Shown piece by piece: positions 14,733 to 22,834 of a stretch of DNA of 64,000 nt (positions within the stretch are counted from its first letter, which is position 1; each line of letters starts with the position of its first letter). Position numbers and translations under genes: made by a program. This DNA is from Pneumocystis sp. 'macacae' (lineage: Eukaryota; Ascomycota; Pneumocystomycetes; Pneumocystales; Pneumocystaceae), in the NCBI GenBank assembly GCA_018127085.1, contig CM030733.1, positions 310,001 through 374,000 of the forward strand, in the 5' to 3' direction. The notes under the pieces were generated by a model. The model was not told the DNA's origin. It did no database searches and saw only the letters and a list, made by a program, of their open reading frames with translations.

Positions 14733-15139
14733 TTATTTGTATCTTACACCGGGGTCATAAAATAGCTTCTATTAAAGTAAATACAGAAACAAAATGAATG
14801 TATCTCTTACGTTCACAAGCTGATAGCATGCTGCTGTATACAAATGATTAGTTACTACTAAAAAAAGCTGGAAAATAATGTATAAAATAGAAAAAACAAC
14901 CAAACAGCATCTTTTCCAGCCTAGATAGCGCGACCCATGCCTACCTCCAAGACCAACCGCAAGAACAGCGCCTAACGATTAAGATAAACCAAAAACAAAT
15001 GCCAAGTTACCAAGAGGATACAATTCTAGCGGCACATTCTTGATACGCGAATACAGGCCCTTGGACCGAAAATGCTTTGTCTAAAGATGCACATCAGAGC
15101 CGCCCCACAAAACATCCTTGTCCTTACATCTGATGCCAT
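14733..15139 (-). CDS. B12D / NDUFA4-like small mitochondrial membrane protein
   Basis: A gene of about 55 codons in five exons, easily missed because no exon is long. The spliced protein begins MASD, continues TKHFRSKGLYSRIKNVPLE, then LYPLGAVLAVGLGAACYQL and ends VNKLFYDPGVRYK. This matches the B12D/MLRQ (NDUFA4-like) family: a short basic N-terminus, the motif V-P-x-E-L-x-P-L, one glycine-rich transmembrane helix, and a K-L-F-x-D-P-x-V-R tail. Members sit in the inner mitochondrial membrane and associate with respiratory complexes. All four introns are GT-AG: one is about 100 bases with a CTAAT-type branch region, the others about 39-45. The conserved tail supports the exon chain strongly. 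Which complex it joins here cannot be told from sequence. Confidence 0.8.
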
Positions 15140-15549
15140 AATTTTTTCACTCGATCTCAAACGAATAATCGTCTCGCCCGGACACCCGTATCCAGACTGG
15201 CTCTGCCGCCAATAAATACTTTTTACAACTGCTTTACAAATACAAGACACCTCTGTCCCCCACACTCAGCACATCTCACTGCTGTCAGGCGCCTCTCCGC
15301 CTCTATCTCTGCCTCTATCTCTACCGCTGACTACCCTACCCTACCCTACTCCAACGCTACCAGCCCTGCCCTAACCCTGCCCTGCCCCAATATACATGTC
15401 CCATGCCCGTCCTCACACATGCCGCCCTCAATACAAAATGCCGCCCCACAGACCCGCTTGCATCCGCCTCGACTCCAAAACACTCCCATATATCCCAGAA
15501 TAGCCCCTCCTGCACGTGACCGTCTACACCCACACCTGTCTGCCAGGCC
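15140..15549. other. Spacer between B12D gene and UTP5, entry into the GC island
   Basis: Between the B12D start and the UTP5 stop, both on the minus strand, so it must contain the B12D promoter. Composition shifts here from mixed to strongly C-rich on the plus strand. At 15335-15400 it has CCCTA/CCCTAA-like runs, including one exact CCCTAA hexamer. No further gene is supportable; long open frames here are a by-product of GC-rich DNA. Confidence 0.6.
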
Positions 15550-19650: not shown

Positions 19651-20719
19651 CAGGGACAGGGACGGGCAGGCGGGTTGCTGGAGGAGCAGGGTCCTGGTTT
19701 TTGTGCAGCCCTGGTCCGGACCAGGGCTGCAGGGGCGCAGGGGTGTTCTGTTGGGCCGGTGTCGGGGCATGGTTCATGGAGTGGCTGTATTTACGCAGAT
19801 GTTATGTATGGGATATGTGCTGTCAAACAGACAGTCATTTGTATATATTTTACGAGGCGTTGAGTAAAATGTTTGTAGTTGGAGCCTTTTTAAGTGTTTG
19901 TTTGTACATAAGTTGCTGAATACAAGATCAAGTAGAGCAGACGGCAGGGGTTGGGTGCAGGGCACGGCTCTGGGCGGGCTGGGCTGGGTGTGTCTGCATG
20001 TTGGCAGTGGAGTCCTGGTCGAGATCTGGTCGAGATTTATATAGTTTCGTGCCGGCCCAACACGCCCGAGCATTGCTCAAGAAACACGATGAGGCTGTCA
20101 AAAGGTAAACAGGGGCGGCTGTGCAGGGAAGATGCCTAAGGCTGCTGCTGGGAAGAGATGCTGCAGGGGAGCGTCTATAGTTGGCCATTGTGCCGTGAAG
20201 ACCACACAACACAGAACAGCGGGGCGTATAGCAGGCGTATAGCGGGGAGGGAGTGGATTAACGTGTTTAAAACACAGGAAAAGTGTGTGCGGGGGATGCA
20301 TGCTGCAAGTGGGGCCGTCCAGCAGGGCTAGGATGCAGAGAAAATTGCTGCTTGAGCGTGCTTTGGAGAACGTAGAAGCACAGGACTGTTTTTTGGAGAC
20401 ACTTGAATGGGGCTAGATAGGAGCCAAAATGAGCACAGAATGGGCATGGGCTCTGTCTCTGCGTCGGGATGCAGCGTATGCACCAGACGCCTTGGTATAA
20501 ACACGGCCCAGAGGCGGCAGACAGGAATAAAATGCAGCAAGGGATTTGCTTTGAAACACTGAGTCCTGATAAGAGATGGCGGGATGCAGCTGGTCCAGTG
20601 GGCTTTGAAGGGGTGTTGGAGCAGTTTTGAGGCAGCTTCTGGGCAGTTTTGAGTGTCAGCCGTGTTTCAAGCCCAGTGCTTGATGTTTTCTTTGACACCG
20701 ACATTAAAAGCAGTATTGA
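19651..20719. other. GC-rich 1.1-kb spacer between BDF1 and RVB1
   Basis: No gene can be supported here, though a short first exon of RVB1 may lie inside. One candidate is ATG AGG CTG TCA AAA G at about 20089-20104, followed by a GTAAAC donor, whose phase fits the first certain RVB1 exon. The stretch holds a 28-base perfect palindrome near its left end and a few short direct repeats (GCGTATAGC and CTGGTCGAGAT, two copies each). Base composition falls gradually to the right. Confidence 0.5.
19704..19731. repeat. 28-base perfect palindrome just after BDF1
   Basis: Each arm is 14 bases (TGCAGCCCTGGTCC) with no spacer, centred between 19717 and 19718, 54 bases past the BDF1 stop. The transcript would form a GC-rich stem, and the DNA could extrude a cruciform. 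It may be a 3' end or RNA-stability element, a protein site or a recombination substrate; sequence alone does not decide. Confidence 0.8.
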
Positions 20720-22834
20720 TTGTGTGGTGCAGGTGCAGGACGGGAGGCACGAGTGGCAGCACATTCGCATCTGCATGGACTGGGTCTGCGGGACGACGGC
20801 ACTGCTGAACAGGTTGCAAGTGGATGGGTTGGTCAGCAAGAGGCTCGAGAGGTATGTTTGGAAGCATCCGACTACTGGGTGTTGGAATGCGTAAGATGGG
20901 GGAGTGCTGCTTGGTTTTTATGGTTTTATGTATTGATGAGATGCTTTTTGAGATTTCGAGATGCTTACGAACCTTGCTGACTCTGTAGGCGTGTGGAGTA
21001 GTAGTTGATCTAATTCGGTCGCGGAGAATGGCGGGTCGTGGTCTGCTGCTTGCGGGTGGACCAGGGACAGGCAAAACAGCGCTTGCACTTGCCGTTGCAC
21101 ATGAGCTTGGTGTTCGTGTGCCTTTTTGCCCAATGGCTGCCAGTGAGGTATATTCAGCAGGTTTAGTGCCAGCGCCATGAGTACTGCAGTCGAGCTGCAG
21201 ATACTCTTCCTGGGTTTTTTGGCTGATGCATATTAGAAATTAAAAAAACCGAAGTGTTGATGGAAAATATTCGCCGTGCAATTGGTATGAAGCAGTTTTT
21301 GTGGCTAAAGCAGAAGATGGATGAGTAAAATGAGTGATAAATGATTCAAATAAGGCTGGTATTTCAAATGGTGGAGTAAAACGATGTTTCTTTGTCTTGG
21401 AACTAATGCATGCCTTTTGGACAATTAAGTGTTTGCAGCTTTTGTCTATTTTTGGTTTCTTCTTCTGAATATTTTTAAATATTTTTTGCAAAAATTTGGC
21501 GATTCTATTCACTATTGATCTCATACTCTAATATACTGTATTTGTCATTTCTAACTCATCTGATCTCTGCTTTTTAAATGGCTTAACTTTGCCCGGGTTA
21601 TATTAGATGATATCGATTGGTTAATAGTTGATTAGGTTTACGCGTTAAAGAAACAAAGGAAGTTTACGAAGGCGAGGTTGTAGAAATGACACCTGAAGAA
21701 GCAGAAAATCCTCTTGGAGGATATGGCAAAACAATTGCACACGTGATTATTACACTTAAGACATTTAAAGGCACAAAGCAATTGAAGCTTGATCCAAGCA
21801 TTTACGAAAGTATCCAAAAAGAGCGTGTTACAGTAGGAGATGTTATCTATATTGAAGCAAATACAGGTGCAGTCAAAGTAAATCTTTTTCTGCATAGCAA
21901 TTGTTCTTCTATGCTAAAAGCTTTTCTAGAGAGTTGGACGTTCGGATACATATGCAACAGAATTCGATCTTGAAGCAGAAGAATATGTGCCGGTTCCGAA
22001 AGGAGAAGTGCATAAAAAAAAGGAAATTATTCAAAATGTTACTTTGCACGATCTAGATGTGGCAAATGCACGGCCTCAAGTATGTAAAAAGTATCTATTA
22101 TATGGTTTTATATTGAGAGCTAGGGTGGACAAGATATCATGTCCATGATGGGACAGATAATGAAACAAAAGCGAACGGAGATTACAGATAAATTAAGAAA
22201 GGAGATAAATAAGGTAGTGAATAAGTATATTGACGATGGAATTGCAGAACTGGTGCCTGGTGTATTGTTTATTGATGAGGTTTTTCACTCTATCTATACT
22301 GTTGCATAATTAATTTATTTTTAGGTCCATATGCTTGATATTGAGTGCTTTACATATTTGAATCGTGCCTTAGAATCTGCCATTGCGCCTATTGTAATTT
22401 TTGCTTCAAACCGAGGAATGTCTGTGATTAGGTAGGGTTTATTTGCCCTGAAAATTTAGAACTGTTAATATCAAATAAGAGGAACTGAAGATATCGTTTC
22501 TCCTCATGGAATTCCTATCGATCTTCTGGATAGACTTTTAATTATACGTACACTTCCTTATACGTCTGAAGAAATTAAGATAATTATTCGTCTTCGTGCA
22601 AAAACAGAAGAACTTCAAATCACAGATACTGCCTTAGACGTATTAACAAAACAAAGCACTGTATCTAGTTTAAGATATGCGATTCAACTTCTTGCACCAT
22701 CGAGTATTTTTGCAAAAGTTAATGGAAGGCAAGAAATTGATGTTCAAGATGTTGAAGAATCTATTGCTCTTTTCCTAGATGGTAAAGAAAGTGCAAAAGT
22801 GGCGCAGATGCAATGTAAAAGTTTTATAAAATAA
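20720..22834 (+). CDS. RVB1: RuvB-like AAA+ ATPase 1 (Rvb1/pontin)
   Basis: Hexameric ATPase of INO80/SWR1 chromatin remodelers and R2TP. The first certain exon reads [19 protein letters not shown] and VGQQEARE, ending at 20851. After an intron come [17 protein letters not shown] and Walker [20 protein letters not shown]. Later exons give [57 protein letters not shown], Walker B with sensor [20 protein letters not shown], then [12 protein letters not shown] and [20 protein letters not shown]. The [11 protein letters not shown] and [12 protein letters not shown] blocks mark Rvb1 rather than Rvb2. The extreme N-terminus is unresolved; the given left edge is approximate. The gene crosses the right flank of the GC island: its 5' exons use GC-ending codons and its 3' exons AT-ending ones. 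Stop at 22832-22834. Confidence 0.9.

What the first reader, a model, noticed from the sequence alone, without database searches (positions are those of the whole stretch)
14900..20950. GC-rich island of native essential genes inside an AT-rich chromosome
From about 15 to 20 kb the sequence is visibly GC-dominated, while the rest of the 64 kb is strongly AT-rich. The island holds conserved ascomycete genes (UTP5, BDF1, part of RVB1) in the local style of short spliceosomal introns, and composition changes gradually through the RRM gene on the left and RVB1 on the right. That argues for a positional process on resident DNA, such as GC-biased gene conversion at a recombination hotspot, a recently transposed telomere-near segment or a special replication feature. 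Horizontal transfer and contamination fit poorly because the flanking exons belong to the same genes.
Basis: partly seen in the sequence, partly recalled or inferred. Interest (0 to 1): 0.87.

Follow-up and report, generated by a model that had tools for sequence, protein, structure and literature searches.

The report
GC-rich, strand-polar recombination islands in Pneumocystis
The GC-rich patch is one of dozens in the genome of the macaque lung fungus Pneumocystis, and its base composition, which is mirrored on its two sides and dotted with telomere-like repeats, looks like the scar of a site where the chromosome is repeatedly broken and repaired during sex.

Summary
In detail: window 15.2-21.2 kb has GC 0.48-0.72 in 300-base steps, in DNA with a median near 0.28. 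The organism is Pneumocystis 'macacae'; the genes are resident.

The island is not unique. I read 13 islands on 9 contigs. All 13 have negative GC skew in the left half and positive in the right, with centres set by GC. Five of them were predicted before reading.

The skew follows side, not transcription: fourfold G:C is 758:58 in genes running outward and 56:326 in genes running inward; 20 of 20 segments agree. Telomere-type runs occur 40 times in one polarity (TTAGGG outward; 1.2 expected) and twice reversed.

Best reading (0.72): long-lived meiotic break hotspots, often at promoters. GC-biased gene conversion raises GC; mismatch-dependent repair would make it strand-polar; extension of the repair strand by telomerase or telomere copying would leave TTAGGG scars. 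These last two steps are inferred. Origin, transcription, transfer and fusion readings fit poorly. No break map, polymorphism data or other-species DNA was available.

The parts
15200..21200 (.). GC island (bounds by GC > 0.5 in 200-base bins)
17879..17977 (.). Centre: 63-base gap between the UTP5 and BDF1 start codons, up to the skew minimum at 17977; inferred break zone at a divergent promoter
   Evidence: ORFs, sequence, skew minimum; the GC-only centre is 18200; break zone is inference
15200..17977 (-). Left arm: + strand C-rich; the G-rich outward strand is the minus strand
   Evidence: GC-defined left half -0.42
17978..21200 (+). Right arm: + strand G-rich
   Evidence: GC-defined right half +0.29
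15550..17878 (-). UTP5 (Utp12 domain), outward gene; 15550 is the ORF stop, the deposited model PMAC_001199 runs on further
17942..19650 (+). BDF1 (two bromodomains, BET), outward gene, 3 introns read by eye, G-ending codons
20740..22813 (+). RVB1 (TIP49), crosses the right edge; GC falls along its exons (start and exon bounds by eye)
16517..16710 (-). Cluster of telomere-type runs in UTP5 (CCCTAA on +, TTAGGG on the outward minus strand): 16517-16526, 16588-16597, 16611-16628, 16673-16684, 16702-16710
   Evidence: 8 runs counted in the left arm, 6 printed
15369..15378 (-). Further telomere-type run, downstream of the UTP5 ORF
14128..14313 (+). RRM gene exon on the left shoulder (GC 0.45), outside the island proper

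Best explanation
The island is one of roughly 40-90 long-lived meiotic double-strand-break hotspots in Pneumocystis macacae, often seated at promoters. Breaks recur at the centre; 5' strands are resected outward for up to 2-3 kb; repair copies the homologue. Over time GC-biased gene conversion raised GC at every kind of site. Because heteroduplex pairs the recipient's 3'-ended (inward) strand with donor-sequence outward strand, and correction favours the donor but with mismatch-dependent efficiency (G.T over A.C, G.G over C.C), the bias is strand-polar and drives G onto the outward strand and C onto the inward one. The 3' end of the outward repair strand is sometimes extended with TTAGGG, by telomerase or by switching to a telomere, leaving interstitial telomeric runs of one polarity. 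Shown here: the islands, their shared anatomy, independence from transcription, the site-class biases and the polar telomeric runs. Inferred: that breaks occur there, that they are meiotic, and the mismatch and telomerase steps.
For: 13 of 13 islands have left-half skew -0.17 to -0.42 and right-half skew +0.11 to +0.36 with centres set by GC. Five of them were predicted in a note written before their sequence was seen. The mean profile of the first 8 is 0.60-0.68 GC within about 1.25 kb of the centre and falls to 0.35-0.44 by 2-3 kb, the scale of resection and conversion tracts (established knowledge). Outward-strand fourfold sites are G .68 C .09 A .14 T .09 in outward genes and G .65 C .15 A .11 T .10 in inward genes, against G .09 C .06 A .35 T .50 on the coding strand of 8 AT-rich ORFs. 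At twofold sites both transition types are pushed to GC (ln odds ratios 4.02 and 3.20 for A/G on the outward strand, 2.20 and 2.62 for C/T), as biased conversion predicts. A toy model with GC bias 3 and mismatch drive 3 gives G .66 C .155 A .10 T .08 (efficiencies chosen by me). C/C is corrected three- to five-fold less well at two yeast loci, with a like reduction in S. pombe, and G/T best (PMC3218862, section 4 read). Telomere-type runs: 40 on the inward strand, 1.2 expected, 2 reversed, in 11 of 13 islands; 4 in 223.5 kb outside. Interstitial telomeric repeats were inserted at double-strand breaks in mammals (PMC7215372, PMC2246262; abstract starts in listing). Private BDF1 changes: 16 towards GC, 6 towards AT, 10 neutral, of 32. 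Spo11-type, MutS and Rad51-family matches are in the genome.
Against: No break map, cross or polymorphism data could be examined, so hotspot activity is not shown. Classical gBGC gives no strand skew; the polarity needs an added mechanism not demonstrated here. The yeast survey pools C/C with G/G and A/C with G/T, so the contrasts my model needs rest on other work it cites and on binding data. A strand-specific mutation process in break repair could give the same composition. In human hotspots flanking mutations are also strand-asymmetric, described as C>N and A>N on one strand (PMC7615360, section 4 read); if that is the 3'-overhang strand, as I read it, its sign is opposite to this. Two of 13 islands have no telomere-type run and one carries 2 reversed runs. 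With skew-defined centres 29 of 30 coding segments follow the side rule; the exception (mitochondrial carrier, 5 G to 7 C) lies 192 bases from a centre. At the window's own island, unlike C14:152 kb, the long-range skew also changes sign.
Confidence: 0.72

Rival explanations
1. The same break hotspots, but composition is made by mutation, not conversion: error-prone synthesis of the outward repair strand inserts G too often.
For: Geometry is identical (repair synthesis runs outward); purines exceed pyrimidines at outward-strand fourfold sites (G+A 1649, C+T 408, summed); meiotic break repair is mutagenic in humans (PMC7615360).
Against: Twofold C/T sites on the outward strand are pushed to C as well (ln odds ratios 2.20 and 2.62); G insertion alone would not do that.
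Confidence: 0.17
2. Islands are replication origins and the skew is leading/lagging-strand asymmetry.
For: The sign (- left, + right) is the usual one for an origin; in the 64-kb window cumulative skew is lowest at the island and skew differs in sign on its two sides; at C14:58 kb skew is negative on the left for about 12 kb.
Against: At the C14:152-kb island 4-kb skew is positive on both sides (112-148 and 156-200 kb) and at C14:58 kb it is near zero on the right; the strong polarity is confined to 2-3 kb; origins do not by themselves raise GC to 0.7.
Confidence: 0.06
3. Transcription (R-loops, strand-biased repair) or codon selection in highly expressed genes makes GC and skew.
For: At least 5 of 13 islands lie between divergent confirmed genes, some of them histone genes (window, L029, L031, L034, L037).
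Against: Genes transcribed towards the centre have the opposite codon ending: inward 56 G to 326 C, outward 758 to 58, 20 of 20 segments.
Confidence: 0.02
4. Horizontal transfer, contamination or a chimeric assembly.
For: Composition is extreme for this genome.
Against: BDF1 is 76-77% identical to the next five proteins, three of them named Pneumocystis; RVB1 crosses the edge; the same structure recurs at 13 loci.
Confidence: 0.01
5. Relocated subtelomeres or telomere-telomere fusion sites.
For: Telomeric rotations are the most enriched words.
Against: Polarity is CCCTAA left and TTAGGG right on the + strand, the reverse of a fusion; dozens of islands; the genes identified are housekeeping genes.
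Confidence: 0.01
6. Selection keeps GC-rich DNA there for a function such as open chromatin, like a CpG island.
For: Several islands lie at promoters.
Against: CpG observed/expected is 0.75-0.94 in the first 8 islands and 0.83-0.87 in two stretches outside; amino acids are changed too; mirrored strand polarity over kilobases is unexplained.
Confidence: 0.01

Closest known systems
GC-biased gene conversion at stable, promoter-seated recombination hotspots
   Same: Local GC peak of kilobase scale on resident genes, site classes shifted towards GC, several islands at promoters.
   Different: Background near 0.28 rising to 0.70; strongly strand-polar, which classical gBGC does not predict; contains polar telomeric runs.
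Runaway GC evolution in gerbils (PMC7403616, passages seen)
   Same: Conserved genes distorted by extreme local GC increase ascribed to stable intense gBGC.
   Different: There the known region is called expansive and the other clusters are at the megabase scale; here islands are about 3-6 kb with a defined centre and mirrored skew.
Strand-asymmetric mutation around human meiotic breaks (PMC7615360, passages, section 4)
   Same: Asymmetry about a break within about 2 kb.
   Different: There an excess of new mutations; here a compositional takeover, probably of opposite sign.
Interstitial telomeric sequences inserted at double-strand breaks in mammals (PMC7215372, PMC2246262; listing only)
   Same: Short TTAGGG runs at internal sites.
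   Different: Here clustered in GC islands with one polarity relative to a centre.

Membership tests
gBGC recombination hotspot | GC raised at synonymous sites and introns in a peak of kilobase scale | tested here: met
   introns looked at only in BDF1 (0.49 and 0.76 GC)
gBGC recombination hotspot | AT-to-GC bias at both A/G and C/T sites | tested here: met
   twofold ln odds ratios 2.20-4.02 in all four classes
gBGC recombination hotspot | Excess of AT-to-GC amino-acid changes against relatives | tested here: inconclusive
   one gene, BDF1: 16 against 6 of 32 private changes; the five relatives have 1-14 private changes (GC-ward against AT-ward 3-7, 4-6, 1-1, 0-1, 2-0)
gBGC recombination hotspot | GC alleles segregate at higher frequency | not testable with these tools
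   no population data held
gBGC recombination hotspot | Double-strand breaks or crossovers concentrated at the site | not testable with these tools
   no map held
gBGC recombination hotspot | No strand asymmetry (classical form) | tested here: not met
   13 of 13 islands polar
Replication origin | Skew changes sign at the site at replicon scale | tested here: not met
   positive on both sides of C14:152 kb; half seen at C14:58 kb; seen at the window's island
Regional centromere of Pneumocystis | One per chromosome | tested here: not met
   4 islands read on contig C14; published chromosomes are monocentric and centromeres of P. murina and P. carinii have 3.9% lower GC (PMC10327204 passages)
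Regional centromere of Pneumocystis | Binding of CENP-A or Mis12 | not testable with these tools
   no ChIP data held
CpG island | CpG observed/expected raised over surroundings | tested here: not met
Interstitial telomeric sequence | Tandem telomeric hexamers at internal sites above chance | tested here: met
   40 runs of the main polarity, 1.2 expected; CCCTAA arrays at the starts of contigs C10 and C15
Interstitial telomeric sequence | Orthologous site lacks the repeat in relatives | not testable with these tools
   no DNA of other Pneumocystis held

The most novel reading that the evidence does not exclude
A strand-polar conversion drive: mismatch correction during meiotic repair fixes alleles according to which strand of the heteroduplex they sit on, so each hotspot writes a mirrored G-rich/C-rich signature readable from one genome, and telomerase or telomere-templated synthesis repeatedly extends the repair strand at these sites. 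Break positions, resection tracts and repair-strand polarity of an unculturable fungus could then be read from composition alone.
Probability: 0.38. Interest if true: 0.92.

Novelty: new variant of a known kind. Interest (0 to 1): 0.85.

Why it matters
Biased gene conversion is usually inferred statistically from small GC shifts. Here it, or a close relative of it, seems to have taken over about 3-6 kb around fixed points in a compact genome, with a polarity that records the direction of DNA repair. If true, three open questions become testable: where an unculturable fungus recombines, which strand and mismatch types drive biased conversion, and whether telomerase acts at meiotic breaks in fungi. 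It would also mean that conserved proteins such as Utp5 are pushed far in composition by a non-adaptive process, and that gene models, codon-usage studies and selection scans in Pneumocystis need care.

Tried and rejected
Centromere (several islands on C14; lower GC in published centromeres of two other species). Transcription-driven skew, my own first idea when the window alone was in view, rejected by inward genes. Replication origin, first suggested by the window's cumulative skew, made unlikely by the 200-kb tile. CpG island. Shared sequence motif at centres: none convincing in 6-8-mers given 1445-4703 tests each. Utp5 relatives: of 8000 scored candidates only the protein itself passed, so no comparison was possible. 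Telomerase acting only at the break point does not explain runs 0.5-2.6 kb away; extension of the displaced repair strand does, but this is inference. Circularity: the skew centre is defined from skew itself, so lean towards the result; one search repeats the test with GC-set centres (bounds grown outward from a starting point inside each island) and drops 10 of 30 segments within 600 bases of them. In three islands (L031, L032, L035) the right edge lies at or near the end of the stretch read, so their GC centres are less sure. In one search two fringe segments used (the RVB1 exon and the Utp12 C-end) were left out and one BDF1 segment added. Of the 30 segments, 28 had a Pfam match and 2 were not scanned (a neighbouring adenylosuccinate-synthetase exon and a BDF1 exon).

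Literature. I found no report of GC islands or biased conversion in Pneumocystis, or of polar skew at hotspots, in searches. Most of these lists are capped (20 of 70, 20 of 26, 20 of 106, 20 of 76, 12 of 102), and of the papers listed I opened only six: passages of PMC10327204, PMC7940399 and PMC7403616, passages and one section of PMC7615360, one section of PMC3218862, and the abstract of PMC9001825. The legend seen in PMC10327204 says that GC content is plotted along P. macacae chromosome 14, so such islands may be visible in print; 'GC-rich', 'recombination' and 'gene conversion' do not occur in its main text.
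Full report
What was checked. The window is contig C14:310001-374000 of an 8,274,841-base assembly of 19 contigs. A BDF1 protein stitched from window 17942-19650 matches PMAC_001200 of Pneumocystis sp. 'macacae' at 100% over 95% of its length; the next five proteins are 76-77% identical, three of them named Pneumocystis (canis, wakefieldiae, murina) and two unnamed. 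The GC island is real: 0.55-0.72 in 300-base steps over 15.3-19.8 kb against a window median of 0.27 per kilobase. Its genes are UTP5 (minus strand), BDF1 (plus) and the first exons of RVB1 (plus), confirmed by Pfam domains. RVB1 exons fall in GC from 0.59 and 0.56 inside the island to 0.35-0.41 outside, which argues against a chimera. The two BDF1 introns measured are G-rich on the coding strand (17 G to 2 C; 21 G to 4 C).

Not unique. A search for A or T followed by 17 G/C bases gave 54 forward matches, of which 50 are listed. Leaving out 5 copies of a repeat near contig ends and 3 homopolymer runs, the listed ones fall in 25 clusters on 13 contigs (my grouping). I read 12 of those 25, and all 12 were islands. 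A thirteenth island (C14:58 kb) was found only by reading C14:1-200 kb, so the pattern misses some: in the 264 kb read as two gapless stretches there are 3 strong islands, of which it marks 2. From these figures I estimate 40-90 islands in the genome (inference). A weak one (C14:96.5-100 kb, GC 0.36-0.50) has the same skew order, ragged at its right end, and a partial one at C5:318 kb has the expected left flank.

Shared anatomy. The 8 islands read first have mean GC of 0.60-0.68 within about 1.25 kb of the centre and reach 0.35-0.44 by 2-3 kb; within that core the mean skew is -0.19 to -0.40 on the left and +0.22 to +0.42 on the right, and mean AT skew lies between -0.05 and +0.15. In each, the V shape of the cumulative skew exceeds all 5000 block shuffles. 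I then wrote down the prediction and fetched 5 more islands chosen only by GC runs: 5 of 5 had the same polarity. To reduce circularity I re-set all 13 centres from GC: 13 of 13 have a negative left half and a positive right half. The 13 lie on 9 contigs and span 2.8-6.0 kb by that measure; three (L031, L032, L035) are not seen to their right edge or only just.

Not transcription. Coding segments were located by residue composition and checked with Pfam: 28 of 30 matched a family, 2 were not scanned. With GC centres and segments at least 600 bases away, fourfold sites are 758 G to 58 C in outward genes (14 segments) and 56 to 326 in inward genes (6 segments: a DEAD helicase and a ubiquitin hydrolase on opposite sides of the C10 island, a DUF5915 protein, an RNA methyltransferase, a C50 peptidase); 20 of 20 follow side rather than gene strand. 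With skew centres and no distance cut, 29 of 30 follow it; the exception is 192 bases from a centre. Read on the outward strand both gene classes give nearly the same composition: G .68 C .09 A .14 T .09 and G .65 C .15 A .11 T .10.

Site classes. Twofold sites show that both A/G and C/T sites on the outward strand moved to GC (ln odds ratios 4.02 and 3.20, and 2.20 and 2.62, against AT-rich ORFs of the window). So there is a symmetric GC bias plus a polar part: a stronger pull on A-to-G than on T-to-C, and purines over pyrimidines at fourfold sites. A donor-directed mismatch correction in which G.T beats A.C and G.G beats C.C has these signs when the recipient's 3'-ended strand pairs with donor-sequence outward strand. 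PMC3218862 (section 4, both parts read) states that C/C repair is three- to five-fold less efficient at two S. cerevisiae loci, with like reductions in S. pombe, and that G/T is best repaired; its own counts pool C/C with G/G and A/C with G/T. With efficiencies I set from that text, an equilibrium with two scale parameters gives G .66 C .155 A .10 T .08, near the observed .67/.11/.13/.09. This shows consistency, not proof.

Telomeric repeats. On the inward strand, rotations of CCCTAA are ranks 1-5 and 8 of 3939 hexamers. Runs of at least 9 bases number 40 (1.2 expected under a second-order Markov model), with 2 in the reverse polarity, in 11 of 13 islands, and 4 in 223.5 kb outside. The 38 of 40 whose places are printed lie about 0.5-2.6 kb from the skew centres. 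CCCTAA arrays stand at the starts of contigs C10 and C15, so this is the telomere unit. In mammals such interstitial runs were inserted at double-strand breaks (PMC7215372 and PMC2246262, abstract starts in listing 68). The polarity, TTAGGG reading outward, is what extension of an outward-growing repair strand would leave, and is the reverse of a telomere-telomere fusion. Intron branch points do not explain it: by coordinates at least 11 of the 38 lie within outward genes (5 in UTP5, 4 in the adenylosuccinate synthetase gene, 1 each in the kinase and CDC20-like genes), where the branch motif would be on the other strand.

Alternatives. Long-range skew is positive on both sides of the C14:152-kb island over tens of kilobases, about zero to the right of C14:58 kb, and changes sign only at the window's own island, so islands as a class do not organise replication skew. 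Published Pneumocystis chromosomes are monocentric, with centromeres 3.9% lower in GC in P. murina and P. carinii (PMC10327204, passages); C14 carries 4 islands that I read. CpG observed/expected is not raised. Foreign origin is unlikely given Pneumocystis-like proteins and a gene crossing the edge. The genome holds a Spo11-type domain, MutS domains at three loci and two strong and two weaker Rad51-family places.

What remains open. No population, cross, break-map or other-species DNA was available. Conversion and strand-specific mutation cannot be separated by composition alone, though the GC push at both transition classes favours conversion. BDF1 shows 16 GC-ward and 6 AT-ward private amino-acid changes of 32, a modest sign, in one gene, that the island is not shared by the five relatives. 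The deposited Utp5 model is 39% G/A/R/P and 10% F/Y/M/I/N/K, and the protein search with my Utp5 returned only that protein.

Verdict. It is a new variant of a known kind.

Noticed in passing
G000: C3:307, C4:553170, C8:480288, C10:472865, C13:6510, C15:374632, C16:10594: The same 20-base G/C string (GGCGCGGGGGGCGGCGCGGG or its complement) occurs near contig ends in all seven listed places (10 of 110 matches are not listed), probably a conserved subtelomeric element.
   Followed up: no
G000:C14:112-200 kb (L020-L028): A mostly steady G-over-C and T-over-A skew runs for almost 90 kb through the 152-kb island; cause unknown, perhaps replication.
   Followed up: partly
window 17942-21170: The deposited protein PMAC_001200 fuses BDF1 with the start of RVB1; the gene model is probably wrong, perhaps because of the GC-rich intergenic stretch.
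   Followed up: partly
L034:2985-3814, L037:4229-4459, L038:2359-2694: Three islands sit at histone genes: a divergent pair that reads as H3/H4, one that reads as H2B, and H3-like exons that differ from the H3 of L034 (the H2B, H3 and H4 labels are my reading of the sequence).
   Followed up: partly
G000:C14:96.5-100 kb (L018): A weak island (GC 0.36-0.50) with the same skew order, possibly a young, cooling or weaker hotspot.
   Followed up: partly
L030:3614-5400: The only two telomere-type runs with reversed polarity lie in the right arm of this island.
   Followed up: no
island inward strands: CGACGA, ACGACG and GACGAC rank 6, 7 and 9 among enriched hexamers after the telomeric ones.
   Followed up: no
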